From: an uncultured Poribacteria bacterium
Lineage (GTDB): Bacteria > Poribacteria > WGA-4E > WGA-3G
Assembly (NCBI GenBank): GCA_951828385.1
Contig: OX639973.1
Coordinates: 4,951,200 to 5,015,199 of the forward strand
DNA: 64,000 nucleotides
Direction: 5' to 3'
Numbering within the stretch: the first letter of the stretch is position 1; each line of letters begins with the position of its first letter. The notes beneath the pieces are model-generated. The model did no database searches. It was not told the DNA's origin and saw only the letters and a program-made list of their open reading frames with translations. The translations under genes were made by a program, and so were the position numbers. This document shows, piece by piece, positions 32,723-43,727 of the stretch.

Positions 32723-33553
32723 ATGTCAAAAGAGCAGACACTTCCTGCAGAACCACTGCCACCGGACACCTTAAATGCTGTTTTGGAGGATTTCTACCAA
32801 AACGGCGTGACGATCGTCCGAAATGTACTCTCACGCGAAGCGTGTGAACGCATCGTTGCGCGCGTTGACGAAATTTTCGCCGAACCGTACTTCATGCAAA
32901 TGCGAAATGTCAAAGGCTCCCGGCAAGATGGCAAAGATCCGATCGTGGTACACCGCCTTTTTGAATGCGACCTCATGTTCCGGGACCTGCTCGTGCGTGA
33001 GCCGATTATCAGCATCGCCGAAACTGTACTCGGTGAGCACTGCCACTGTATTGCACAAGGCTGTATCTTGAACCGGAAAGATTTGGGTATCAACCGATTT
33101 CACATTGACGATGGTGTGGAATTCCCAATCACGCCAGAGATGGACCGGCACGACCCGAGACTGCGGATGCCGGTGCTACGTATGTCCGTACAAATAGCGT
33201 TGAGCGACCAAGATGAAGCCAAATACGGTCCGTCTCAATTTGTTCCGGGCAGCCACTACTCTGGCAGGCAACCCGATGACCCAGAACATCCGACATTTGA
33301 GGGTAAAGAACCCGTTTCGCTCCTCATGAAAGCCGGGGATCTCTATCTGCTCAACGGACAAACATGGCATCGCGGCGCGCCGAACCAGACGGATCGGGTG
33401 CGTTACCTCTTCCATCAAGTCTACGGACAACGCTTCGTCGCACAGCGGTTCTGGCCCTACCTCAACTACCGTATGCCCGATTACGTTTTGGAGGGTGCTG
33501 ATGAACGTCTACTCCGCGTTCTCGGCAAACACCCTGAAATGGCATACGGATAA
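32723..33553 (+). CDS. Phytanoyl-CoA dioxygenase family Fe(II)/2-oxoglutarate oxygenase
   Basis: The 276-residue protein shows the double-stranded beta-helix iron site: HxD in NRFHIDDGVEF, the distal His in LNGQTWHRGAPNQT, and the 2-oxoglutarate-binding Arg in DRVRYLFHQVY. The N-terminal FYQNGVTIVRNVLSREACERI is typical of the family. Such enzymes hydroxylate small molecules, and large families of them occur in Poribacteria. The gene stands alone; the substrate is unknown. Confidence 0.9.
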   Translation: MSKEQTLPAEPLPPDTLNAVLEDFYQNGVTIVRNVLSREACERIVARVDEIFAEPYFMQMRNVKGSRQDGKDPIVVHRLFECDLMFRDLLVREPIISIAETVLGEHCHCIAQGCILNRKDLGINRFHIDDGVEFPITPEMDRHDPRLRMPVLRMSVQIALSDQDEAKYGPSQFVPGSHYSGRQPDDPEHPTFEGKEPVSLLMKAGDLYLLNGQTWHRGAPNQTDRVRYLFHQVYGQRFVAQRFWPYLNYRMPDYVLEGADERLLRVLGKHPEMAYG

Positions 33554-33633
33554 ACCGATACCCCTACACGGCAAATGATTTTTTATGGCATGAAAACTGC
33601 AGTTGTCAGTATACTACAGGGAGACGTTAATTC

Positions 33634-33861
33634 ATGGCACATCTAGATAAAGTTAAAGAAGAAATCGGCTGGTTGAAGGTAGTCTTCGCTATTTTAATTG
33701 CCGCGGACATTTCCTTAGTCGCATGGGTGGCTCAGAACCACCGAAAAGCCGATCCGTTTCTTGTTACAGCAGGTGTAATCGGCGCATTTTTAGTTACATT
33801 TGTAGTTGTTTGGATTAACAACGTTGCATATCTAAAAATTAATGATTTGGAGGAATTATAA
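33634..33861 (+). CDS. Small two-helix membrane protein
   Basis: The 75-residue protein has hydrophobic segments at about 13-32 and 43-63 and charged ends. GGGAGA upstream at 33618 supports the start. The stop codon shares one base with the ATG of the 30-residue gene that follows (TAATG), so they form a coupled pair. Family unknown. Confidence 0.65.
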   Translation: MAHLDKVKEEIGWLKVVFAILIAADISLVAWVAQNHRKADPFLVTAGVIGAFLVTFVVVWINNVAYLKINDLEEL

Positions 33862-33953
33862 TGGAATGGGCACCAATTCTTGCATTGGCAGTGTTTCTCG
33901 TGGGGATCGGTATAGTCGCGGGAACTGCTATAAGAAACGCTTATAAAGATTAG
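33861..33953 (+). CDS. 30-residue single-helix membrane microprotein, copy 1
   Basis: The ORF is MEW, then a hydrophobic helix (APILALAVFLVGIGIVAG), then TAIRNAYKD and a stop. GGAGGAA at 33849 is a good ribosome site and the ATG overlaps the previous stop. A second copy at 36858-36950 keeps the C-terminal GIVAGTAIRNAYKD exactly while the helix diverges conservatively. That pattern argues for a real translated protein. Confidence 0.7.
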   Translation: MEWAPILALAVFLVGIGIVAGTAIRNAYKD

Positions 33954-34052
33954 CAGACTGTCAAGCTTTTGATTCGTCGAGCCAATAAATATGTCTATAG
34001 ACAACGTTACCACTTTATGATTGTCAAACTGCGTTAGAGGATAAAGACAATT

Positions 34053-34922
34053 ATGGATAACTATGCGAAGTTGATTTTAGGACGTGATTTGTATCATATT
34101 GCAAATTTGTTGATGAGTATTATGTGTGTGTTTATGTGTATAACAGGTTGTGGAAAGGCGCAGAATGTCCCATCCGACACCGAGAAGATGGAGTGGGGCT
34201 ACGAAACGGAAAACGGACCAGATGTTTGGGCGCAGCTCAGCCCGGAATACTTCTTGTGTGCTGAGGGGAGACACCAATCGCCAATTGATCTTGTGAACCC
34301 GATCCTCGAAAAACTTCCACTTATTACGGATGAGTACTATCACACAAGGGACCTGAACATCCGAAATACTGGACATACCATTGAAGTGGCGTACCCGGAA
34401 GGCAGTCGTATCTATATTGATGGCACCGCTTATCAACTGCTCCAATTCCATTTCCACGCCCCCAGCGAACATACAGTAGCAGGTAAACCGTTTGATATGG
34501 AGATGCACCTCGTTCACAAAAGCGAAGAGGACAACTTGGCAGTCGTTGGATTGTTAATCGAGGAGGGTCGTCACAACTCCTCTTATGATCCTATCTGGGA
34601 CCATCTGCCCGCCGTCCCAGGCGAAACGCAACACTTTACGGTTAGCGGGAATTTTCCCGTTGATCCTCGGATGATGTTGTCGCCAAATGGGCACGTAACC
34701 GACGAAGCAGTGCGCCCTTTTCCGCCTGCCTACCGCTACGAGGGTTCACTGACGACACCGCCCTGTTCAGAAGAAGTCAAATGGATCGTGCTCACAACGC
34801 CGATTGAGATGTCTGAAGCCCAAATCGCAGCATTTAAAGCGATCATTCATGACAACAACCGACCAGTACAACCCCTGAATGGGCGAAAACTGTTGGTAAA
34901 TTCTATCGCGGACGAGCAATGA
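34053..34922 (+). CDS. Alpha-class carbonic anhydrase, lipoprotein-type
   Basis: The 289-residue protein has a lipobox-like VFMCITGC at residues 27-34 and then a complete alpha-CA domain: QSPIDLVNPI, the zinc ligands in LQFHFHAPSEH and MEMHLVHK, and SLTTPPCSEEVKWIV with the active-site Thr. It hydrates CO2 to bicarbonate, probably in the periplasm or at the cell surface. The next gene overlaps its stop by 4 nt. Confidence 0.93.
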   Translation: MDNYAKLILGRDLYHIANLLMSIMCVFMCITGCGKAQNVPSDTEKMEWGYETENGPDVWAQLSPEYFLCAEGRHQSPIDLVNPILEKLPLITDEYYHTRDLNIRNTGHTIEVAYPEGSRIYIDGTAYQLLQFHFHAPSEHTVAGKPFDMEMHLVHKSEEDNLAVVGLLIEEGRHNSSYDPIWDHLPAVPGETQHFTVSGNFPVDPRMMLSPNGHVTDEAVRPFPPAYRYEGSLTTPPCSEEVKWIVLTTPIEMSEAQIAAFKAIIHDNNRPVQPLNGRKLLVNSIADEQ

Positions 34923-35338
34923 TTGGTTTTCTGGGGACAACAATGTATTTATACCACGGAAGTAAGCAGTCGTTTCCCAAATTAAAAAAACGGAAGGCGC
35001 ACGCGCCACAAGGGAGACCCCCTGAAGAAGCTTTGGAAGCAATCTATCTCACGCCTGATTTCCTTTTCGCATTGGCTTGCGCGGCACGTCCACCGGGGAC
35101 TGCTAACATCGATCTAAAAAAACGGCTCATCTCCTTTGACAATCCCGATCAGTTTGAGCCAGATGAGACGGTTTATATCTATTTTGTAGACCTCGCAAAA
35201 ATTTTAGATGACAAGAAAATCTACATTGATCCGTGGCAGATTGCTGTAACCGAGGCTGAGATAACACCAGACAAAGTTGAAACCTATAAATCTGGCGATC
35301 TGTGGAAATACTATCGCCTTGTTGATAAATCGGATTGA
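34919..35338 (+). CDS. Hypothetical protein with ART-like N-terminal phrase
   Basis: The 139-residue protein overlaps the carbonic anhydrase by 4 nt (ATGA). The start YLYHGSKQSFPKLKKRKA followed by AIYLTPDFLFALACA resembles the beginning of small ADP-ribosyltransferase or RNA 2'-phosphotransferase-type folds (YHGS, then a Y-T segment). The rest is not diagnostic. An in-frame alternative ATG at 34943 (MYLYHG) would fit such a domain better. Function is uncertain. Confidence 0.6.
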   Translation: MIGFLGTTMYLYHGSKQSFPKLKKRKAHAPQGRPPEEALEAIYLTPDFLFALACAARPPGTANIDLKKRLISFDNPDQFEPDETVYIYFVDLAKILDDKKIYIDPWQIAVTEAEITPDKVETYKSGDLWKYYRLVDKSD

Positions 35339-35356
35339 TTTACAGGAGGGAACATA

Positions 35357-36337
35357 ATGTTTATTGCCACGAACAACGCTATCTATGCCGTTGAAGATAA
35401 CGGAAACGACGAACCCACCCAAATCTATAACGGCACAAACCATCAAGATCACGGCGGAAACGGAACGCATGACGCAATGGTTTCACTGTCAAACGGTCAG
35501 GCTGTGCTGTCTGCCCTGTCGGATGGCACACTACTACTTTTATCAGGAGATAACGAAAAACGGATTCCAACAGGTATAGAAGATCCGATCGCTTCGTTGC
35601 TCGTTGTGCGCGAAGACCCGTTGACACTGCTCATCGGAACCGATGAAGGGGCTTATGTCTATCGCCTCGTGGGAGAGGAAGGACCGGCTGAACGCGTCGT
35701 CGCGTTTGACGAATTAGAATGTCGGGAAGATTGGTATACGCCGTGGGGCGGTCCCCCAGCCGTGCGGACGCTTGCCAAAACCCAAGACGGTTTTTGTTAC
35801 GCGGATATCCACGTCGGAAGTATCATGCGCTCCCACGATGAAGGGATTTCCTGGGAACCCGTCACGCCGGAACTCCATAAAGATGTCCATCAGGTCACTA
35901 CGTGTCCTGCAGACGATAATCGAGTTTATGCAAACACGCAAAACGGTGTTTATGTCAGTGCCGACCGTGGGCACTCCTGGGAGAATCGGATCGAAGGGTT
36001 GCCACGTCGCTACGGCACCGGTATCGCCGTACATCCAACAGACCCAGACCTAATGATCGCCACAGTCCAAAACGGACCTAGAGGCGGCGGTGCTTGGCTC
36101 TGTCGTTCAGACAACGGCGGCGCGACATGGACAGAACTCAACGATCAACTCACAGAACCTACCGATCGGATTAGAACAGGTTACATAGCATTTACATCCG
36201 ATGGAACAGCGTGGGCAGTTATCGGAAAGACGCTTTACATCGGAAAGGACCGAGCCACAGATTGGAGTCCGTTCTGGACACCACCCGAACGCCAGGCATC
36301 GTCCAATGCGTATCCGATCCAATCTCTCGCTGTATAA
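35357..36337 (+). CDS. BNR/Asp-box beta-propeller protein (sialidase/VPS10-like repeats)
   Basis: The 326-residue protein contains Asp-box motifs SxDxGxxW: SHDEGISWEP, SADRGHSWEN and SDNGGATWTE, spaced as in a beta-propeller. No signal peptide is visible and it starts MFIATNNAIYAVEDNG. Such proteins are often called exo-alpha-sialidase or WD40/YVTN-like, but catalytic residues of sialidases are not evident. AGGAGGG at 35343 supports the start. A copy of its last 45 codons lies at 36976-37112. Confidence 0.85.
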   Translation: MFIATNNAIYAVEDNGNDEPTQIYNGTNHQDHGGNGTHDAMVSLSNGQAVLSALSDGTLLLLSGDNEKRIPTGIEDPIASLLVVREDPLTLLIGTDEGAYVYRLVGEEGPAERVVAFDELECREDWYTPWGGPPAVRTLAKTQDGFCYADIHVGSIMRSHDEGISWEPVTPELHKDVHQVTTCPADDNRVYANTQNGVYVSADRGHSWENRIEGLPRRYGTGIAVHPTDPDLMIATVQNGPRGGGAWLCRSDNGGATWTELNDQLTEPTDRIRTGYIAFTSDGTAWAVIGKTLYIGKDRATDWSPFWTPPERQASSNAYPIQSLAV

Positions 36338-36455
36338 CCTATCGTTTGCGTTGGTATTGAAGGGATAGTAAACTATGAAGGGTATTATCTAACAATCCCA
36401 ATCCTTTAGGTTTAGGTCCAACCCCGTAACGCTCGTGCTGGAGGTCAAAAAACAC

Positions 36456-36484
36456 TTGACTTTTACCTAAAATTGTGGTATAAT
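36456..36484 (+). promoter_or_regulatory. Strong extended -10 promoter for an orphan omega-RNA-like transcript
   Basis: TTGACT at 36456-36461 and TATAAT at 36479-36484 have a 17-bp spacer ending in TGG, an extended -10. It points into a 290-nt structured stretch with no gene. Confidence 0.75.
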
Positions 36485-36770
36485 TAGAGCGTCAGTTGTG
36501 GCGGAATGCTTATCGGCTATCACTCAATAGCCGTCCCGCCACCCCTAATAAGCAGGAATACTGACACTGACGATCCAGTGAGTATCGTTATCATACATAT
36601 CATAGACTCACAGTAGGTTTGGTCACTACAAACCGATATTATCCTCGCCGTAGGGCATACGGAGAGTCTAAACGCCTGTGGAGTCCGTGTAAGACCTCAC
36701 TTTGGAGGCTGTGGACGTTGAAACAGGAATGGAGGCATCCCACTGCTTTAGCTGTGGGAGGATGTCAATG
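36485..36770 (+). ncRNA. Orphan TnpB/IscB-type omega-RNA-like element
   Basis: The stretch begins with a long imperfect stem (GTGGCGGAATGCTTAT / ATAAGC...CCGCCAC region, 36497-36560) and has further stems (AGTAGGTTTGGTCACTACAA area). It ends with CATCCCACTGCTTTAGCTGT and GGGAGGATGTC, the typical right-end hairpin of IS200/IS605 TnpB elements. No TnpB or TnpA gene is present. It interrupts the first codons of a duplicated VOC gene, so a guide read past the right end would be VOC sequence. Confidence 0.6.
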
Positions 36771-36771
36771 T

Positions 36772-36840
36772 GTTAGGTATAGACTTCACGTTTTTTGCGG
36801 TGAGCGATATGCAAAAATCGCTCACCTTTTATTGTGACCT
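36772..36840 (+). pseudogene. 5' fragment of a duplicated VOC gene
   Basis: Bases from TTAGGTATAGACTTCACG onward match codons 3-25 of the intact VOC gene at 37256, including a perfect 10-bp stem at 36799-36826. The fragment has lost its start to the inserted RNA element and stops being similar near 36845, where the 30-residue microprotein gene follows. Confidence 0.85.
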
Positions 36841-36857
36841 GCTTTGGAGGATTTATA

Positions 36858-36950
36858 ATGGAGTGGTTTGCAATTTCTATGGTAGTCATATTTCTCACAG
36901 GGCTCGGTATAGTTGCCGGAACTGCTATAAGAAACGCCTATAAAGATTAG
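36858..36950 (+). CDS. 30-residue single-helix membrane microprotein, copy 2
   Basis: MEW is followed by a hydrophobic helix (FAISMVVIFLTGLGIVAG) and TAIRNAYKD. TTTGGAGG at 36843-36850 is a good ribosome site. The ATG context ATTTATAATGGA also resembles copy 1 at 33861, so the duplication included its leader. The 75-residue partner of copy 1 is missing here. Confidence 0.65.
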   Translation: MEWFAISMVVIFLTGLGIVAGTAIRNAYKD

Positions 36951-36975
36951 GATTTATTAGAAGTAAATATCCCAT

Positions 36976-37112
36976 GTACTGCCGATGGAACAGCGTGGAC
37001 AGTTATCGGAAAGACGCTCTACGTCGGAAAAGATCGTGCCACAAATTGGAGTCCGTTCTGGACAGCACCCGAATATGATGGTGAATATCCGATCCAATCC
37101 TTCGCCGTTTAA
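36976..37112 (+). pseudogene. 3' fragment of the BNR-repeat gene
   Basis: The sequence from GCCGATGGAACAGCGTGGAC to the stop codon matches the last 45 codons of the gene at 35357 with scattered substitutions (for example CGAACGCCAGG replaced by a shorter GAATATGATGG stretch). It has no start and is a remnant of a segmental duplication. Confidence 0.85.
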
Positions 37113-37118
37113 CCTATC

Positions 37119-37211
37119 TAGGACTTACGCAAACCCCTTCGCTGGCGGGGTTTGAAACTCCGCCAGCAGCGCGCCTTATGTAGAGGCTCATGAAAAAATG
37201 CGTAAGTCCTA
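37119..37211. repeat. MITE family 2, copy 2 (93 bp, perfect 13-bp ends)
   Basis: The ends TAGGACTTACGCA and TGCGTAAGTCCTA are perfect inverted repeats. The element is flanked by CTATC on both sides (37114-37118 and 37212-37216). The duplicated paralogous site at 36338-36350 lacks the element and has a single CTATC, so it is an empty-site control. Confidence 0.9.
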
Positions 37212-37255
37212 CTATCCTTTGCGTTGGTGTTGAAGAGATAAAAGATATAAAAACT

Positions 37256-37621
37256 ATGAAAATATTAGGTATAGACTTCACGTTTTTTGCGGTGAGCGAT
37301 ATGCAAAAATCGCTCACCTTTTATCGTGACCTCCTTGGGATTCCGCTGGCATGTTTGGTGCATGACGGTACATGGGCAGAATTCGAGATAGACCCCGGAA
37401 CGTTGGTATTAGGACAAGGTTATGATTTCACACCTCCCGGTGGTGGGACGGTCGCACTTGCTGTTGAGGACGTGAGGGCTGCCTTGGGAGAATTAGAACA
37501 ATTAGGCATCCAAATCCATTCGCCTCTCGGTGAATCCGCCGTATGTTTTTGGGCGGTTATCACGGACCCCGACGGCAATCGTGTCATCGTCCATCAGCGA
37601 AAGGATAAAACAGTCGGTTGA
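37256..37621 (+). CDS. VOC (glyoxalase/bleomycin-resistance) family protein
   Basis: The protein is 121 residues from ATG 37256 and begins MKILGIDFTFFAVSDMQKSL. The VOC pattern is clear: an N-terminal beta strand, FYRDLLGIPL, the metal-ligand Glu in GTWAEFEIDPG, and FWAVITDPDGNRVIVHQ near the end. Family members bind metals and act as lyases, dioxygenases or resistance proteins. The start was moved from the longer frame because similarity with the duplicate at 36772 begins here. A terminator-like hairpin (37292-37319) lies inside the coding sequence. Confidence 0.87.
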   Translation: MKILGIDFTFFAVSDMQKSLTFYRDLLGIPLACLVHDGTWAEFEIDPGTLVLGQGYDFTPPGGGTVALAVEDVRAALGELEQLGIQIHSPLGESAVCFWAVITDPDGNRVIVHQRKDKTVG

Positions 37622-37637
37622 AATAAGGAACAACCAT

Positions 37638-38375
37638 TTGGTACAATACGCGAAGAAATTTCTGACACTGCAAGTTAAATTCGCCCAGAAAATCGCAGAA
37701 ATCTCCAATCAAGCACTCGCAGATGTCCTAATCGACTACACAATATTGCGAACGCTGTTCAATTTACGAGTCTCCCACGATATTTCCCATCCATTGTGGG
37801 ATGCGTTCATCACAGGCCTTGAGCTGTCCGATAACTCTGAAGATTGGACATACAACTTCTATCTCCAGCGTATGACAGTGAACTCGGATACTTCTGATGA
37901 ACGGCGATTTTTTGGGTGTTTCTCCTATGTCTATCCATGGCGCGGCACGAAAAAACTCCGACTCCATTTTGAAAATCGTGAGACCGCTGACCATGGTGCA
38001 TTGAGCAAGGAAAGAATGGCACTCCGAAAGTCGGAGTTGTCGGCGATGTTCCGATACGTCCAAGACAATCATCCCGATGTAGAAACGGTGCGTGGTGGTT
38101 CGTGGCTTTACAACATCCCTGCCTATTGTAGACTCTTCCCGCCAGATTATGTTAAGACAGCCAAACCCGTCGGTTATGAATATGAAACCACATTCTGGGC
38201 ATTGTGGGGACAATTTGTTGCTCGCAATGGATCCATTCGAGAACCCGCTGCCTCGCAATTCTTAGAGGGACTTGGTAAGCAGCAAACGATTGAAGGCTGT
38301 CTTCAATGTTTTCCCTACCAAGTGCTGAGACCGGAATGTTCGATTGAGATATTCTACGATTTTTATAACTTGTGA
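37638..38375 (+). CDS. Hypothetical protein (about 245 aa)
   Basis: The longer frame overlaps the VOC gene by 90 nt; TTG at 37638 with AAGGAA at 37625-37630 is the better start. The protein is soluble, begins VQYAKKFLTLQVKFAQKIAE and contains RRFFGCFSYVYPWRGTKKLR and VRGGSWLYNIPAYCRLFPPD. It has several Trp and Tyr residues and ends with a Cys-containing ECSIEIFYDFY. No family was recognised. It directly follows the VOC gene and may be cotranscribed. Confidence 0.7.
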   Translation: MVQYAKKFLTLQVKFAQKIAEISNQALADVLIDYTILRTLFNLRVSHDISHPLWDAFITGLELSDNSEDWTYNFYLQRMTVNSDTSDERRFFGCFSYVYPWRGTKKLRLHFENRETADHGALSKERMALRKSELSAMFRYVQDNHPDVETVRGGSWLYNIPAYCRLFPPDYVKTAKPVGYEYETTFWALWGQFVARNGSIREPAASQFLEGLGKQQTIEGCLQCFPYQVLRPECSIEIFYDFYNL

Positions 38376-38434
38376 ACCTCAGACGGCGGATTTCCGTTTT
38401 TCCCTATGTTCAGAAGTATGATTATCTCTATTCT

Positions 38435-38463
38435 TTGCAATTCAGAAAAATTGTAGGTATAAT
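38435..38463 (+). promoter_or_regulatory. Promoter for the lipoprotein gene at 38534
   Basis: TTGCAA at 38435-38440 and TATAAT at 38458-38463 are separated by 17 bp, with AGG before the -10. The start codon is 71 nt downstream. Confidence 0.6.
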
Positions 38464-38533
38464 ATCATTGAAATCTATTGCTTCTATAAGAAGCGCATGT
38501 AATCTAATTTTTTATTTTTTAAAGGAATTCAAC

Positions 38534-39058
38534 GTGAACATCAAAAACAGGTACGTCATAAAACTCACATTTATACTGATTATTACCACTTTGATTGTCG
38601 GACTCTTTGCTTGTGACCGAGTTCATCAGGTAATAGAACCAGAAATCTCCGAAACAGATGTCTCCGTGCCGATGGAAGAACGCGACCACGTGTGGGTCGT
38701 CGATCAAAACGGTGTTGAGATACCTGTCCCCGGAACATGGGTGTTAGTATCGCATACACATCTGAATTCAACCTCTACAATCGGCGAAAGTTTCACTTTA
38801 CCACCAGATGATCCGCATAGCACTCAAATATCGGATGGCACATACACAGACGGTGAAGGTATCCTCTGGACAAAGGTAAGGGTAACTACCGCCAGTGGTG
38901 ACCAATGGCAGTTCTTGGAACGCGTTGACACAAGCGTTACCCCACATCGGCTCTACGTTGTTGTCACAGTAGACGACAACGGTGTCCCTATACTCGAATA
39001 CGGCGAATACCCTTTCGATTTACCGAAACATAACTTCCAAATCTGGGAAAAACAGTGA
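38534..39058 (+). CDS. Small lipoprotein of unknown function
   Basis: The start GTG 38534 has AAAGGA at 38521-38526, giving 174 residues with a hydrophobic segment and the lipobox LFAC at about residue 24-27. The mature part is beta-rich (HVWVVDQNGVEIPVPGTWVL, then YVVVTVDDNGVPILEYGEY). The longer upstream frame is rejected because a promoter lies inside it. It has no recognised domain and is followed by a 37-residue ORF. Confidence 0.7.
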   Translation: MNIKNRYVIKLTFILIITTLIVGLFACDRVHQVIEPEISETDVSVPMEERDHVWVVDQNGVEIPVPGTWVLVSHTHLNSTSTIGESFTLPPDDPHSTQISDGTYTDGEGILWTKVRVTTASGDQWQFLERVDTSVTPHRLYVVVTVDDNGVPILEYGEYPFDLPKHNFQIWEKQ

Positions 39059-39062
39059 GGTT

Positions 39063-39176
39063 ATGAGAATGGTTCAAAAGATTGAAGAACAAGACGGACA
39101 CATGTTTCTCCACTTTGGTGACCCACCAGAGGATGTAGGAAAAATTGAGTTCGTCAATTGCATAGCGTATCAGTAA
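39063..39176 (+). CDS. Possible 37-residue peptide
   Basis: The ORF begins MRMVQKIEEQDGHMFLHFGD, 4 nt after the lipoprotein stop, and ends inside the left arm of a terminator. GAGG at 39056-39059 is a weak ribosome site. Short length leaves it uncertain. Confidence 0.35.
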   Translation: MRMVQKIEEQDGHMFLHFGDPPEDVGKIEFVNCIAYQ

Positions 39177-39192
39177 AACCTGATACGCTTTT
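39164..39192 (+). terminator. Intrinsic terminator after the lipoprotein gene
   Basis: AGCGTATCAG and CTGATACGCT (39164-39173 and 39180-39189) form a 10-bp stem with a TAAAAC loop, followed by TTT. The stop codon of the 37-residue ORF lies in the loop. Confidence 0.75.
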
Positions 39193-39198
39193 GCTAAG

Positions 39199-39492
39199 TT
39201 ATAACCCAAGTTGCTACTAACAGGTTTCGCACATTTCAGAAAGCGTTTTCGTCTCTTTCCCCACCCCGTAGGGGTGATATTGCTTCGCAGTGAGAATAGA
39301 AAATGGCGTATTTACGCGATTGCACTCCGTATGAAGGTTAAAAAATAAACTGGGTAATTTACTCCAGGTCCGGTAGGTGCGGTTTCCTAACCGCACCGGG
39401 TCCGATAAAAAACTGAAAATTACCCGATTAAATTCTTAATCTTCATTAGGAGTGCTATGTCTATAATAGGTGGCAACTTGCGTTAAGTTATA
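39199..39492. repeat. Composite inverted-repeat element (TTATAACCCAAGTTGC ends)
   Basis: The left end TTATAACCCAAGTTGCTAC and the right end GGCAACTTGCGTTAAGTTATAA are complementary with gaps. Inside lies a second small element with ends GGGTAATTTAC and GAAAATTACCC (about 39351-39422). That element carries the palindrome GGTAGGTGCGGTTTCCTAAC (39371-39400). The stretch has no gene. Confidence 0.55.
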
Positions 39493-39574
39493 ATTCATCT
39501 AATCTTCGGGCAGGAGACCCCGCTGCTTTAGCTCGGGGAGGAATGCCCGCTCCTGTATTATGTAGAAAAAATAT

Positions 39575-39603
39575 TTGAAATTCTATGAAAAATGTTGTAT
39601 GAT
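39575..39603 (+). promoter_or_regulatory. tnpB promoter and structured leader
   Basis: TTGAAA at 39575-39580 and TATGAT at 39598-39603 have a 17-bp spacer. The leader that follows can fold GGAAACCGACA (39617-39627) with TGTCGGTTTCC (39680-39690), enclosing a GTTACCG/CGGTGAC arm. Confidence 0.6.
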
Positions 39604-39732
39604 AATAGTATCACGTTGGAAACCGACATACGAAGCGTTACCGCCCCCTTCCCAGTAACGGGTGGGGACCCCGGTGACGTGTCGGTTTCCTACCCACTTC
39701 GTAGGGGTTAAAGGCGTGATACGTGAAAACCC

Positions 39733-40896
39733 ATGGCGAAAAAACGAAAGCGAAAACAAAAGCGCGTGCGTCGGACGTATAAATATCAGATACGTGAGCA
39801 TCCACAAAATATGCGACTCGGCAATATGCTGGATGATCTTGCTGATGTCCACAACCATTTTTTGCGACTTGAGAACCGCTATTATCGCAGATATGGTAAA
39901 TATGCGGGGCGTTTCCGCTTGCAACCGCACTTGACGAACTTGCTGAAACGCACCAAGAAACATTGGGCTTGGATACCTCGTGACACACTTGACGCTGTAA
40001 TTATACGCCTCCACATCTCTTTTGAAAGGTTTTTCGACATCGTAGGTGTCGGTCGTCCGAAATACAAGAAACGTGGAAAATACCGTTCTGCGAAGTTTCA
40101 AAGTGGTTATCTCCTTGAAGAAGGTCGTGTCCGTCTCTCTTTCAAAGCGTGGGACGAACCCTCGCACTCCTTTAAATTCCACAAACGCTGGTTTTCTTTT
40201 CATCAGCACCGTGATTGGAAAGGAAATGTTCGCTATATCCAAATCCTTCGTGATGCTGTCGGCACCTATTGGCTCTATGTCGTGACCGATGATACCTCTA
40301 AAGAAGTGCTGCCTGCTACGGGTGAAAGTGTAGGTGCAGACTTCGGTATGAAAGACGCATTTTTGACGTTGAACACCGGTGAGAAAATACAATCGCCACA
40401 ATTCTTGAAACAGTCCTTGAAAGAACTCCGAACACTCAACAAAGCACTTAGCCGTAAAGTCAAAGGTTCTAACAATTGGTGGCGTTGCCTGCGTCAACTC
40501 ACATGGTTATATCGCAAAGTTTCTAATCAACGCAAAGATTGGCATTGGAAACTTGCCACGGACCTGTGTAGAAGGTTTGACCTTATCGCCACCGAGACGC
40601 TGAACCTTTCGGGCATGAAACGCCTGTGGGGACGCAAAGTTTCCGACCTTTCCTTCGGGCAGTTTGTTGAGATATTGAAGTTCAAGTGTTTCAAACATAA
40701 TCGTGAGTTCCGTCAAGTCGGACAATGGACCCCTACAACCAAACCGTGTTCGGATTGTGGGTATCACAACGAAAATCTTTCTCTCTCTGATAGGCAGTGG
40801 ACGTGTCCTGAATGTGGTTCTCACCACGATAGAGATGTCAACGCTGCGATAAACATTTTGAGGGCTGCTTGTGGTCCCTCTGTGGAGCAGATGTAA
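39733..40896 (+). CDS. tnpB: TnpB RNA-guided nuclease (RuvC, zinc finger)
   Basis: The 387-residue protein keeps all RuvC acidic residues: D in SVGADFGMKDAFLTLN, E in LIATETLNLSGMK and D in HDRDVNAAINILRAA. The four-cysteine zinc finger is CSDCGYHNENLS...CPEC. The N-terminus is strongly basic (KKRKRKQKRVRR), as in other TnpB proteins. It would use an RNA from the element's 3' end to cut DNA next to a transposon-specific motif. The gene is intact. Confidence 0.93.
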   Translation: MAKKRKRKQKRVRRTYKYQIREHPQNMRLGNMLDDLADVHNHFLRLENRYYRRYGKYAGRFRLQPHLTNLLKRTKKHWAWIPRDTLDAVIIRLHISFERFFDIVGVGRPKYKKRGKYRSAKFQSGYLLEEGRVRLSFKAWDEPSHSFKFHKRWFSFHQHRDWKGNVRYIQILRDAVGTYWLYVVTDDTSKEVLPATGESVGADFGMKDAFLTLNTGEKIQSPQFLKQSLKELRTLNKALSRKVKGSNNWWRCLRQLTWLYRKVSNQRKDWHWKLATDLCRRFDLIATETLNLSGMKRLWGRKVSDLSFGQFVEILKFKCFKHNREFRQVGQWTPTTKPCSDCGYHNENLSLSDRQWTCPECGSHHDRDVNAAINILRAACGPSVEQM

Positions 40897-40966
40897 GACG
40901 TTTCCTCGGAAATGCGAACTGCTACGAAGCACAAGCCCCTGCCTTTAGGCAGTGGGTGCCTTGACT
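40700..40966 (+). ncRNA. Probable TnpB omega RNA (3' end of tnpB and right end)
   Basis: TnpB guide RNAs come from the 3' part of tnpB and end at the right end, with the guide read from flanking DNA. The right-end hairpin CCCCTGCCTTTAGGCAGTGGG is present at 40936-40956 and the next bases outside would form the guide. The 5' boundary is a guess. Confidence 0.45.
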
Positions 40967-40978
40967 TTTCAGATTTTT

Positions 40979-41007
40979 TTGACATTCACGAAAATTGTGG
41001 GTATAAT
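40979..41007 (+). promoter_or_regulatory. Promoter P1 upstream of the porin gene
   Basis: TTGACA (40979-40984), 17 bp and TATAAT (41002-41007). It starts 12 nt outside the TnpB element and is nearly a duplicate of P2 73 bp downstream. Confidence 0.7.
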
Positions 41008-41051
41008 TAATCCAATTCGTGCGATTATTCATGAATTTATCGTGATTTTAT

Positions 41052-41080
41052 TTGACATCCGCGAGGGGTGTGGGTATAAT
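41052..41080 (+). promoter_or_regulatory. Promoter P2 upstream of the porin gene
   Basis: TTGACA (41052-41057), 17 bp and TATAAT (41075-41080), immediately followed by a Fur-box-like sequence at the expected transcription start. Confidence 0.75.
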
Positions 41081-41085
41081 TAAAA

Positions 41086-41104
41086 GATAATGAGATTCGT
41101 TATC
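41086..41104. promoter_or_regulatory. Fur-box-like operator 1
   Basis: GATAATGAGATTCGTTATC matches 16 of 19 positions of the classic Fur consensus GATAATGATAATCATTATC. It lies just after the -10 of P2, so bound Fur would block initiation. Confidence 0.7.
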
Positions 41105-41169
41105 AATTTTTCAGAGGCATGACCTCGCATAAACATTCGGATTTCACGCTATACAAACAACTAAAATAT

Positions 41170-41188
41170 GATAATGAGTCTCAATATC
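41170..41188. promoter_or_regulatory. Fur-box-like operator 2
   Basis: GATAATGAGTCTCAATATC matches about 15 of 19 Fur-consensus positions and lies 18 nt before the preferred start codon of the porin gene. The overlap with the longer frame's start argues against that start. Confidence 0.6.
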
Positions 41189-41206
41189 ATATTTTTTGTA
41201 AATTCT

Positions 41207-42454
41207 ATGAAAAAACAACTGGTTCTCCTCACTATTTGCGGGCTGTTTACCTTACTCAATATTGGTGCTATCGCTGAATCAAACCCGTTCTCGGTCTCCG
41301 GATACGGCGTGATTCACTACGCACACTTCGATTGGGAACTTGATCCTGACAGACGCGCCGCGATTGACGTGGAACGTTTTGTCATCGCGCCAAAATACCG
41401 TATCAACGATACCATCCGACTTGAATCGGAACTCGAATTTGAACACGGTGGGACCGGCAGCACGATGGAATTTGACAAATTTGAAGAGTTCGGAGAATTT
41501 GAGACAGAGATTGAAAAGGGTGGCGAGGTGATTGTCGAAAAACTCGCTGCTGTCTTCTCCTTCCAGCCATCTTTCAACCTCCGCGTTGGACACATCATCG
41601 TTCCGGTAGGTCTCGTTGCGAAACGGCACCGACCCCAACACTACTTCACAACAACCCGTCCCGAAGCAGAGACACACCTTATTCCAACGATCTGGCACGA
41701 AACTGGTGTTGAACTTTTCGGTTCACTCGGTTCGCTGAACTATCAAGCACAAATTGTCAATGGATTGGATTCAACCGGTTTCAGTTCGCGGCACTGGATC
41801 GTTCGCGGACACCAACTGCGATTTGAAACTATAAACGCCGAGGCTCCCGCGTTCGTCGGACGACTCGATTATGTGTTTAACGAAAACGCAACCGTCGGTA
41901 TCTCTGGTTATTATGGAGACACCGCGGCAAACCGTCCGAAACCCGATGTAGATTTCGATGCACACGTCGGGATTGTCAGCCTTCACGGATTTTACGAGGC
42001 GAATGCCGTGAAAGTTCGAGGATTGTTCCTCTGGGGAGCACTCCAAAACGCTGATCGGCTCTCTAAAGTCAACCGGACCCTCTCCAATAACCTCAATGTG
42101 AAACGGACACCGATAGGCAGTTCAGCCCTCGGTTGGTCCATTGAAGCAGGCTATGATATTTTATCATTTTTCAAGCAACCCAATAACAGCACGGACCGCC
42201 ACAACCTGAAGGACACATCTCCAGATAAGGTTTTGGATGTCTTCGCGCGTTACGACTATTATGATACGATGGCGAGCGTTGAAGGGATTATCTTCGACAA
42301 TCCGCGGTGGCAGAGAAGTACATGGACTTTCGGGATTAACTACCACGTTCATCCGAAGGTGGTTTTCAAGAGTCACTACTCACTCCGACGCTTAGCAACA
42401 AAGGATAAAAACAGGGAAAATACCTTCGCACTCGGCTTCGGTTTTCAATATTGA
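41207..42454 (+). CDS. Outer-membrane porin-like beta-barrel protein
   Basis: From ATG 41207 the protein has 415 residues with a signal peptide (MKKQLVLLTICGLFTLLNIG). Amphipathic strands fill the rest (FSVSGYGVIHYAHFDW, LNYQAQIVNGLDS, WTFGINYHVHPKVVFKSHYS) and the C-terminus LGFGFQY ends in an aromatic residue, as in outer-membrane barrels. It resembles phosphate-selective-porin-type proteins found in FCB/PVC genomes. Two promoters and two Fur-box-like sites suggest iron control. Substrate unknown; it may feed iron complexes or organic ligands to the adjacent island. Confidence 0.78.
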   Translation: MKKQLVLLTICGLFTLLNIGAIAESNPFSVSGYGVIHYAHFDWELDPDRRAAIDVERFVIAPKYRINDTIRLESELEFEHGGTGSTMEFDKFEEFGEFETEIEKGGEVIVEKLAAVFSFQPSFNLRVGHIIVPVGLVAKRHRPQHYFTTTRPEAETHLIPTIWHETGVELFGSLGSLNYQAQIVNGLDSTGFSSRHWIVRGHQLRFETINAEAPAFVGRLDYVFNENATVGISGYYGDTAANRPKPDVDFDAHVGIVSLHGFYEANAVKVRGLFLWGALQNADRLSKVNRTLSNNLNVKRTPIGSSALGWSIEAGYDILSFFKQPNNSTDRHNLKDTSPDKVLDVFARYDYYDTMASVEGIIFDNPRWQRSTWTFGINYHVHPKVVFKSHYSLRRLATKDKNRENTFALGFGFQY

Positions 42455-42587
42455 TAACAATTGTCAGTCGTCAGTACGATTTTTTTCTCCAAAAAAAATC
42501 TTTCAGTTTGCCTTGCAGTGAGAGTTACAAGAGGTTCTTGGAAATCCCAACGCCTCTTTCTGAAAACTGGTAACTGGTAACTATTCC
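42455..42587. repeat. Intergenic inverted repeat (TTGTCAG arms)
   Basis: CAATTGTCAGTCGTCAGTAC with the hairpin GATTTTTTTCTCCAAAAAAAATC on the left pairs with CTGAAAACTGGTAACTGGTAAC on the right. It separates the porin and imelysin genes. Confidence 0.5.
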
Positions 42588-42599
42588 ATGGAGATTTTT

Positions 42600-43727
42600 A
42601 TGAAACTTTATAAGATTTGGACACTTTTTGACGCAGCTTGCAAGTCAAAACTTGCTATAGGAATGTGTTGTTTGCTACTTGCATCCGCTTTTATTGTCGG
42701 ATGTGGGAGGGACGATGAAACAGACGAATCTGGCGATGCGCAGGGCGAGGCTTTTGATGCAAGCACTATGCTCAACGATTTTGCCAATACCGTTGTATTA
42801 GCCACCTACACTGAATTAGATAGCAAAGCAGGCGAACTCTTGACCGCTGTCAAAGCGTTGGCAGCGGATACCTCGCAAGCAAACCTTCAAAAAGCGCAAC
42901 AGGCGTGGAAAGCGACCCGAAAACCGTGGGAACAGAGCGAATCGTTCTTATTCGGGCCCGTGGATACGCAAGGGCTTGATCCAGCATTAGATAGCTGGCC
43001 CGTCGATCACGTCAATCTACAATCTGTTTTGGATAGTAACGCCGCCTTAACAGTCGATTTTGTCAGCGGTTTAGAAGATACACAGAAAGGTTTTCACACC
43101 ATTGAGTTCTTGCTGTTCCGTGATGGCGACCAACGCAAAGCATCGGATATAACTGATCGTGAATTGGAGTACCTCGTTTCGACAACAGAGAACCTTAAAG
43201 AGAGTACTTCTCAACTACGGTTGGCATGGGCACCAGAGGGCGAAAATTTCAGTAACATCGTCGCGCAAGCCGGCGCGGGCAGTACTGTCTATCCGTCGCA
43301 GAACGCCGCAGTGCAAGAGATGATCAACGGTATGATTGTCATCGCCGACGAAGTCGCAAACGGCAAAATTTCTGACCCTTACAACGAATCGGACACGACC
43401 CTTGTTGAATCTCAATTTAGTTTCAACTCCATCTCAGATTTCCAAGACAATATCCGGGGGATTCAGAACGTCTATATAGGGAAATTTATAACTGATGGGC
43501 AAGGACTCAACGAATTCGTGAATAGTAAGGATGCAGATTTAGATGCTCGCTTCCAGCAGGAGGTGCAGGCAGCAATTGACGCTATCGGCGCGATTCCAGA
43601 CCCGTTTCGCGATTCGATTACTGCAAACCGCGGTGCTGTCCAAATCGCGATTGATGCTGTCAGCAAGGTACAACAGACGCTTGAACAGGATATACTCCCG
43701 CTCGTTCAATCGAGTGAGTTCAATTAA
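42600..43727 (+). CDS. Imelysin (IrpA/EfeO-like) lipoprotein
   Basis: From ATG 42600 (GGAG 7 nt upstream) the protein has 375 residues with lipobox AFIVGC. The imelysin domain is recognised by the GxHxxE motif in KGFHTIEFLLF, by WEQSESFLFGPVDTQGLDPALDSWP, and by QNAAVQEMINGMIVIADEVANGKI. Imelysin-type proteins are induced by iron limitation and act in iron uptake near the outer membrane or periplasm. The DUF1111 gene downstream is a usual neighbour. The stop codon overlaps a target duplication of a MITE. Confidence 0.92.
   Translation: MKLYKIWTLFDAACKSKLAIGMCCLLLASAFIVGCGRDDETDESGDAQGEAFDASTMLNDFANTVVLATYTELDSKAGELLTAVKALAADTSQANLQKAQQAWKATRKPWEQSESFLFGPVDTQGLDPALDSWPVDHVNLQSVLDSNAALTVDFVSGLEDTQKGFHTIEFLLFRDGDQRKASDITDRELEYLVSTTENLKESTSQLRLAWAPEGENFSNIVAQAGAGSTVYPSQNAAVQEMINGMIVIADEVANGKISDPYNESDTTLVESQFSFNSISDFQDNIRGIQNVYIGKFITDGQGLNEFVNSKDADLDARFQQEVQAAIDAIGAIPDPFRDSITANRGAVQIAIDAVSKVQQTLEQDILPLVQSSEFN

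What the first reader, a model, noticed from the sequence alone, without database searches (positions are those of the whole stretch)
36456..36840. Stand-alone omega-RNA-like transcript whose guide would match an intact VOC gene
A strong promoter drives a structured stretch ending in an IS605-type right-end hairpin, with no nuclease gene. The bases beyond the right end (TTAGGTATAGACTTCACG...) equal codons 3 onward of the intact VOC gene at 37256. A nuclease acting in trans, such as the TnpB at 39733 only 3 kb away, could be guided to the paralogous locus. This might be homing or a domesticated repressor-like system.
Basis: inference. Interest (0 to 1): 0.7.

Follow-up and report, generated by a model that had tools for sequence, protein, structure and literature searches.

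The report
Transposon remnant making guide RNA alone
A short piece of a transposon in a sponge-associated bacterium keeps everything needed to make a DNA-cutting guide RNA except the cutting enzyme, and it begins with a knotted RNA leader that matches no known RNA family yet heads dozens of related transposons, while the guide's likeness to the nearby intact gene is a by-product of duplicated DNA and is probably too imperfect for cutting.

Summary
The feature is real: a 389-bp element (36380-36768) in a Candidatus Poribacteria genome. It is a non-autonomous IS200/IS605 (IS608-like) element with left end, strong promoter, pseudoknotted 5' leader, omega-RNA-like scaffold and right end, but no tnpB. 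Two full-length relatives in the same genome carry tnpB between the same ends (L009, L010); similar tnpB-less elements occur in related genomes. Empty sites at two genes fix the rule: insertion after TGAA (here ATGAA), element end GTCAA, guide = flank. The intact VOC gene has the TAM but mismatches guide positions 1, 2 and 4; the likeness comes from a local duplication, and published TnpB data predict no cutting. The likely nuclease is the L009/L010 TnpB, not the one at 39733, a distant lineage that inserts after TTCAT. Homing or repression of VOC is not supported; a guide RNA usable in trans is plausible but untested. The surprise is the leader: a strongly covarying pseudoknotted RNA (42 model matches here; 50 of 85 genomes searched in the phylum; no Rfam match) heading tnpB-only elements and some tnpB-less ones, with a duplicated, co-varying closing strand that suggests a two-state switch.

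The parts
36375..36379 (+). ATGAA: start of the VOC fragment and TAM-like target site left of the element
   Evidence: TGAA precedes 28 of 30 recognisable left ends of the family, TTGAC two; empty sites at VOC and larB
36380..36768 (+). Whole non-autonomous IS608-like element, 389 bp, no tnpA or tnpB
   Evidence: Ends shared with tnpB-bearing L009 and L010; empty-site comparison; no ORF of size
36397..36416 (+). Left-end hairpin CCCAATCC-TTTA-GGTTTAGG, two mismatches (perfect in L009 and L010)
   Evidence: Sequence; compared
36456..36484 (+). Sigma-70-type promoter, 11 of 12, spacer 17, TG before the -10
36490..36572 (+). Pseudoknotted 5' leader: P1 36490-36496 with 36566-36572 (or the first copy 36560-36565); P2 36498-36506 with 36534-36542; pseudoknot 36507-36513 with 36548-36554; P3 36514-36520 with 36527-36533
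   Evidence: R1 match, 44 bits (this sequence was in the training set); topology above 1000 of 1000 shuffles
36644..36768 (+). Guide-RNA scaffold, RAGATH-18-like core at 36675-36729
   Evidence: Rfam 27.9 bits, below the cut-off 44.9; R2 and covariation
36735..36738 (+). GCAT in front of the right-end hairpin; most relatives have GAAT
   Evidence: Alignment; coordinates
36739..36758 (+). Right-end hairpin
36769..36788 (+). Guide, 20 nt: TGTGTTAGGTATAGACTTCA (codon 2 onward of the VOC fragment)
36799..36826 (+). Terminator-like hairpin plus T run inside the VOC fragment, 11 bp after the guide
   Evidence: 1 found, 0.5 expected
37261..37280 (+). Matching stretch of the intact VOC gene (37256-37621), mismatched at guide positions 1, 2 and 4; preceded by ATGAA
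36773..36848 (+). VOC 5' fragment, 96% identical to 37265-37340
36973..37118 (+). Second copy of the end of the BNR/sortilin-like gene (first copy 36189-36343), 81% identical
   Evidence: Pfam

Best explanation
The feature is a non-autonomous IS608-like element that lacks tnpB but keeps the transposon ends and a complete guide-RNA transcription unit: promoter, pseudoknotted leader at the predicted transcript start, scaffold, then a guide taken from the host flank. Shown: anatomy, ends, insertion rule, relatives with tnpB, covariation of scaffold and leader, and TnpB genes with catalytic motifs elsewhere in the genome. Inferred: the RNA is made and loaded in trans by the L009/L010-type TnpB; after insertion it would have directed cutting of the empty site (ATGAA plus VOC start) on sister copies, which favours retention. 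Changes at both ends suggest that the element itself no longer moves. The intact VOC gene is a bystander left by a local duplication and is predicted not to be cut. The leader most likely protects or gates the transcript at its 5' end (inference).
For: Full-length relatives with tnpB between the same ends in the same genome. Insertion rule from two independent empty sites and 28 of 30 left ends. Scaffold: 21 of 27 pairs change on both sides, 97.4% of cells paired against 42-51% when slid. Strong promoter and leader fold. Other tnpB-less elements with the same ends in related genomes: L197, L198, L200, L201, L207, L215. L009/L010 TnpB is ISDra2-like with D/E/D motifs. A Y1 tnpA with the same kind of left end at L016.
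Against: No expression data. Left-end hairpin has two mismatches and GAAT is GCAT, so parts may already be decaying. Single copy. The scaffold alignment was fitted to its model and includes this sequence.
Confidence: 0.6

Rival explanations
1. An inert relic: a deletion derivative that looks intact only because it is young, with no guide RNA in use.
For: Two mismatches in the left-end hairpin and GCAT for GAAT; single copy; sits in a gene fragment; another scaffold copy, L011, has lost its left end.
Against: Promoter, leader and all 27 scaffold pairs are intact; tnpB-less elements recur in several genomes with different leaders.
Confidence: 0.33
2. One reading: a nuclease such as the TnpB at 39733 is guided to the intact VOC gene, as homing or as a domesticated repressor.
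For: TAM and guide positions 3 and 5-20 match the intact gene, the only near match in the genome; the two TnpB elements are 3 kb apart.
Against: Mismatches at guide positions 1, 2 and 4 against published seed requirements; the 39733 TnpB is a different lineage with a different insertion site; the likeness is explained by duplication; the arrangement is not conserved in relatives.
Confidence: 0.05
3. On the leader only: it is a translational switch for tnpB, in which the 5' strand pairs either with the first downstream copy (knot closed) or with the second copy next to the start codon; in tnpB-less elements it is a leftover.
For: Both copies covary with the same strand: scores 0.419 and 0.403, 98% and 96% of cells paired, at most 0.134 when slid. 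tnpB starts a few bases after the second copy; in L072 the second copy contains the ATG. Absent where tnpA comes first.
Against: The knotted leader persists in elements without an ORF: this one, L207 and L203. A role as 5' clamp that stabilises the transcript fits as well.
Confidence: 0.4

Closest known systems
Palindrome-associated (ends-only) IS200/IS605 elements, e.g. the PATE-like element of Halanaerobium (PMC7290912)
   Same: Short element with left and right ends, no complete transposase or tnpB, presumably moved in trans
   Different: This one keeps its own strong promoter, a knotted leader and a complete guide-RNA scaffold
TnpB omega-RNA of IS200/IS605 elements (ISDra2; TnpB processing its own mRNA, PMC10278001)
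   Same: Scaffold ends in the right-end hairpin, guide is the flank, TAM on the left
   Different: No tnpB in cis; RNA is a separate transcription unit
RAGATH-18-derived RNA of IS607 TnpB (PMC11061315)
   Same: Core helices CCUGU...ACAGG and GUCC...GGAC and surrounding bases; same scaffold family serves IS607 elements of this genome (L012)
   Different: Below the Rfam cut-off; sits inside IS608-like ends and carries an added right-end hairpin, whereas that paper reports RAGATH-18 only with IS607
HDV-like pseudoknot RNAs (comparison for the leader)
   Same: Strand order of P2, pseudoknot and P3 resembles HDV P1, P2 and P3 (from general knowledge)
   Different: No Rfam match; no P4 or catalytic segment recognised; an extra outer helix with duplicated 3' strand

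Membership tests
Non-autonomous IS200/IS605 element | Same ends as complete family members, no transposase gene | tested here: met
Non-autonomous IS200/IS605 element | Site-specific insertion next to a fixed short motif, no target duplication | tested here: met
   Two empty sites and 28 of 30 left ends
Non-autonomous IS200/IS605 element | Mobilised in trans by a Y1 TnpA | not testable with these tools
   A tnpA with the same type of left end exists (L016); end hairpin and GAAT are altered here
TnpB guide (omega) RNA | Conserved scaffold structure shared with RNA next to tnpB | tested here: met
TnpB guide (omega) RNA | Transcribed, bound by TnpB and guiding cleavage | not testable with these tools
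   Promoter only
RAGATH-18 RNA (RF03064) | Reaches the family's gathering score | tested here: not met
   27.9 against 44.9 bits; therefore called RAGATH-18-like only
IS607 | IS607 serine recombinase and ends | tested here: not met
   IS608-like ends with TGAA / GTCAA; L012 has the recombinase, this family does not
TldR-type RNA-guided repressor | TnpB with lost RuvC residues | tested here: not met
   Cognate L009/L010 TnpB keeps D, E and D motifs
Any described RNA family, for the leader | Rfam match | tested here: not met
   None in 33000-43000 at E 1 or in L009, L010 at E 5
HDV-like ribozyme, for the leader | Self-cleavage with catalytic core | not tested
   Only strand order compared; cleavage needs an experiment

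The most novel reading that the evidence does not exclude
The 5' leader is an undescribed transposon-borne structured RNA of Poribacteria: a pseudoknot whose closing 5' strand can pair with either of two tandem 3' strands and so acts as a switch or 5' clamp. It controls output of TnpB and of stand-alone guide RNAs in elements that lack tnpA, so that guide-only elements share the regulation of the tnpB elements and borrow their nuclease.
Probability: 0.35. Interest if true: 0.72.

Novelty: new variant of a known kind. Interest (0 to 1): 0.55.

Why it matters
If the RNA is made, these genomes hold guide-only transposons that borrow a nuclease encoded elsewhere, a direct test case for how RNA-guided nucleases help selfish DNA persist. 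The leader is a candidate regulatory RNA for TnpB expression, about which little is known: dozens of copies per genome, clear covariation and no Rfam family, so it can be probed and mutated at once. The RAGATH-18-like scaffold between IS608-like ends shows that nuclease and scaffold have been exchanged between IS607 and IS200/IS605 transposons.

Tried and rejected
A retargeted or homing guide was rejected because empty sites show that the guide is the plain insertion flank. An escape-mutation reading of the mismatches in the intact VOC gene was considered and dropped, because codons 2 and 3 vary among the orthologs. A domesticated guide upstream of larB (L011) was tested: the scaffold is there only in this genome and in one G046 contig that is probably contamination; the other 28 larB loci examined lack it. 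A first general pairing scan mis-assigned several leaders and was replaced by a stricter topology search with shuffles; in L197, L198, L013 and L127 that search finds no such topology, although L127 is an R1 match. MAFFT misplaced the short scaffolds, so a model-based alignment was used. Two regular expressions for left ends were badly anchored and were replaced.

Full report
Setting. The window lies in a 6.66-Mb single-contig genome. Named records that encode relatives of its TnpB are almost all Candidatus Poribacteria, among them a chromosome of the same length as the same-genus genome G009. A protein search finds 53 matches to the window's TnpB in the genome.

What is there. A DNA search with the region gives two places, L009 and L010, where the left part (query 1-105) and the right part (264-397) lie about 1.25 kb apart, and others with only one part. 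L009 and L010 are full elements: left-end hairpin, promoter, leader, a 358-codon tnpB, scaffold, right-end hairpin. The finding is the same kind of element without tnpB. Exact ends come from empty sites. VOC orthologs in relatives mostly begin ATGAATGTATTAGG; here the DNA reads ATGAA|GGG...GTCAA|TGTGTTAGG. larB orthologs mostly read AAATGAATGGAAATTG; at L011 the DNA reads GTCAA|TGGAAATTG. Of 60 pattern matches, 30 are recognisable left ends of this family; TGAA precedes 28 and TTGAC two. The element is 36380-36768 and the guide starts at 36769.

The guide and the VOC gene. The flank is a VOC fragment (76 bp, 96% identical to 37265-37340), and the end of the upstream BNR/sortilin-like gene is duplicated too (155 bp, 81%). 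Among 60 genomes a second VOC match is seen only here and, as a separate partial match, in G034. A genome-wide pattern search with up to 3 mismatches finds only the element's own flank and the intact gene, the latter with three mismatches, all in the first four guide positions. Work on two TnpBs says that mismatches there stop or impair cleavage. So the likeness is inherited, and cutting of the intact gene is not expected. Those codons also vary among relatives.

Which nuclease. The L009 and L010 TnpBs are 97% identical to each other, 53% identical to the TnpB of an IS607 element of this genome (L012) and 31% identical over 252 aa to the TnpB at 39733. They have the Pfam TnpB domains, are ISDra2-like (E 2.4e-44 to a solved TnpB) and keep the three RuvC motifs. 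The 39733 element has other ends and inserts after TTCAT. Its own 3' RNA resembles the scaffold faintly (21 bits), so these RNAs may share an ancient core, but it is not the natural partner. A Y1 tnpA with the same kind of left end lies at L016.

Scaffold. Rfam gives a sub-threshold RAGATH-18 match (27.9 against 44.9 bits). In a model-based alignment of 34 matches (31 distinct), 21 of 27 pairs change on both sides and 97.4% of cells pair, against 42-51% when slid. That alignment was fitted to the structure, and this element was among the ten training sequences; the compensatory changes are nevertheless visible in the raw sequences (GUCC/GGAC against GUUU/AAAC). In this genome the model gives four strong matches, two with tnpB and two without, then IS607-type and weaker ones.

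Leader. The stretch after the promoter has the strand order P1-P2-PK-P3-P2'-PK'-P1', and a search for that topology scores it above all of 1000 dinucleotide shuffles. The same architecture precedes most tnpB-only elements of the genome: 42 model matches, about 38 with a tnpB start codon directly behind. On 20 leaders aligned by MAFFT without any structure model, 25 of 32 pairs change on both sides, including all seven pseudoknot pairs, and 92% of cells pair against 32-43% when slid; the structure was named from one of those sequences. The model R1 contains this element's leader, so its own 44-bit match is partly by construction. R1 matches occur in every same-genus genome searched and in 50 of 85 genomes of the phylum, mostly in one family. 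Elements whose first gene is tnpA lack the leader. No Rfam family matches it. The 3' strand of P1 occurs twice in tandem, and both copies follow the 5' strand equally (0.419 and 0.403), which suggests two alternative pairings; the second copy lies next to the tnpB start codon. The duplicated strand is kept in the finding's element, which has no ORF, and the knotted topology is also found in tnpB-less L207 and L203, so a purely translational role is not required.

Verdict. A stand-alone guide RNA is plausible, and the L009/L010 TnpB is the most likely nuclease. Targeting of VOC and domestication are not supported. An inactive relic is the main rival, because the left-end hairpin and the GAAT before the right-end hairpin are altered; that GAAT reads the TCAA end in IS608 is general knowledge, not tested here. 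Transcription, loading, cutting and the leader's function are all untested.

Noticed in passing
39604-39736 and about 40 other places in the genome: The same pseudoknotted leader stands in front of the window's TnpB gene and most tnpB-only elements, with covariation in all helices and a duplicated P1 3' strand.
   Followed up: yes
L012 (2724.4-2726.8 kb) against L009 and L010: IS607-type elements with a serine recombinase and IS608-like elements share a TnpB lineage and scaffold, which suggests exchange of the nuclease-scaffold module between transposon types.
   Followed up: partly
39620-39690 (P3 of the leader) and leaders L030, L033, L039, L040, L049, L056, L058, L059; also L035: A GC-rich palindrome (about CCCCCTTCCCAGTAACGGGTGGGGACCCC) sits in the P3 loop of several unrelated leaders and, in L035, in a left-end hairpin: it looks like a small mobile palindrome that targets hairpins.
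   Followed up: no
37118-37213: Inverted-repeat insertion (AGGACTTACGCAAA ... GCGTAAGTCCTA) between the duplicated gene end and the intact VOC gene; similar ends appear at L144.
   Followed up: no
L013 (4340.6 kb): Another tnpB-less unit: promoter, hairpin leader with a tandem copy GACGTAGT-GACGTAGT, then an IS607-type scaffold; no pseudoknot of the same topology was found.
   Followed up: partly
L197 and L198: tnpB-less elements of relatives whose 5' structure differs from the common leader but whose outer helices differ in a compensatory way (CTGCTTA/TAAGCAG, CTACTTGC/GCAAGTAG).
   Followed up: no
G046:C255 (L208, L220): A contig 93% identical to this genome's larB locus, where other members of its genus give about 70-75%: probable contamination of that assembly.
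   Followed up: partly
around 10128, minus strand: A left end of the 39733 type (AATCTTCGGGCAGG) with no leader behind it.
   Followed up: no
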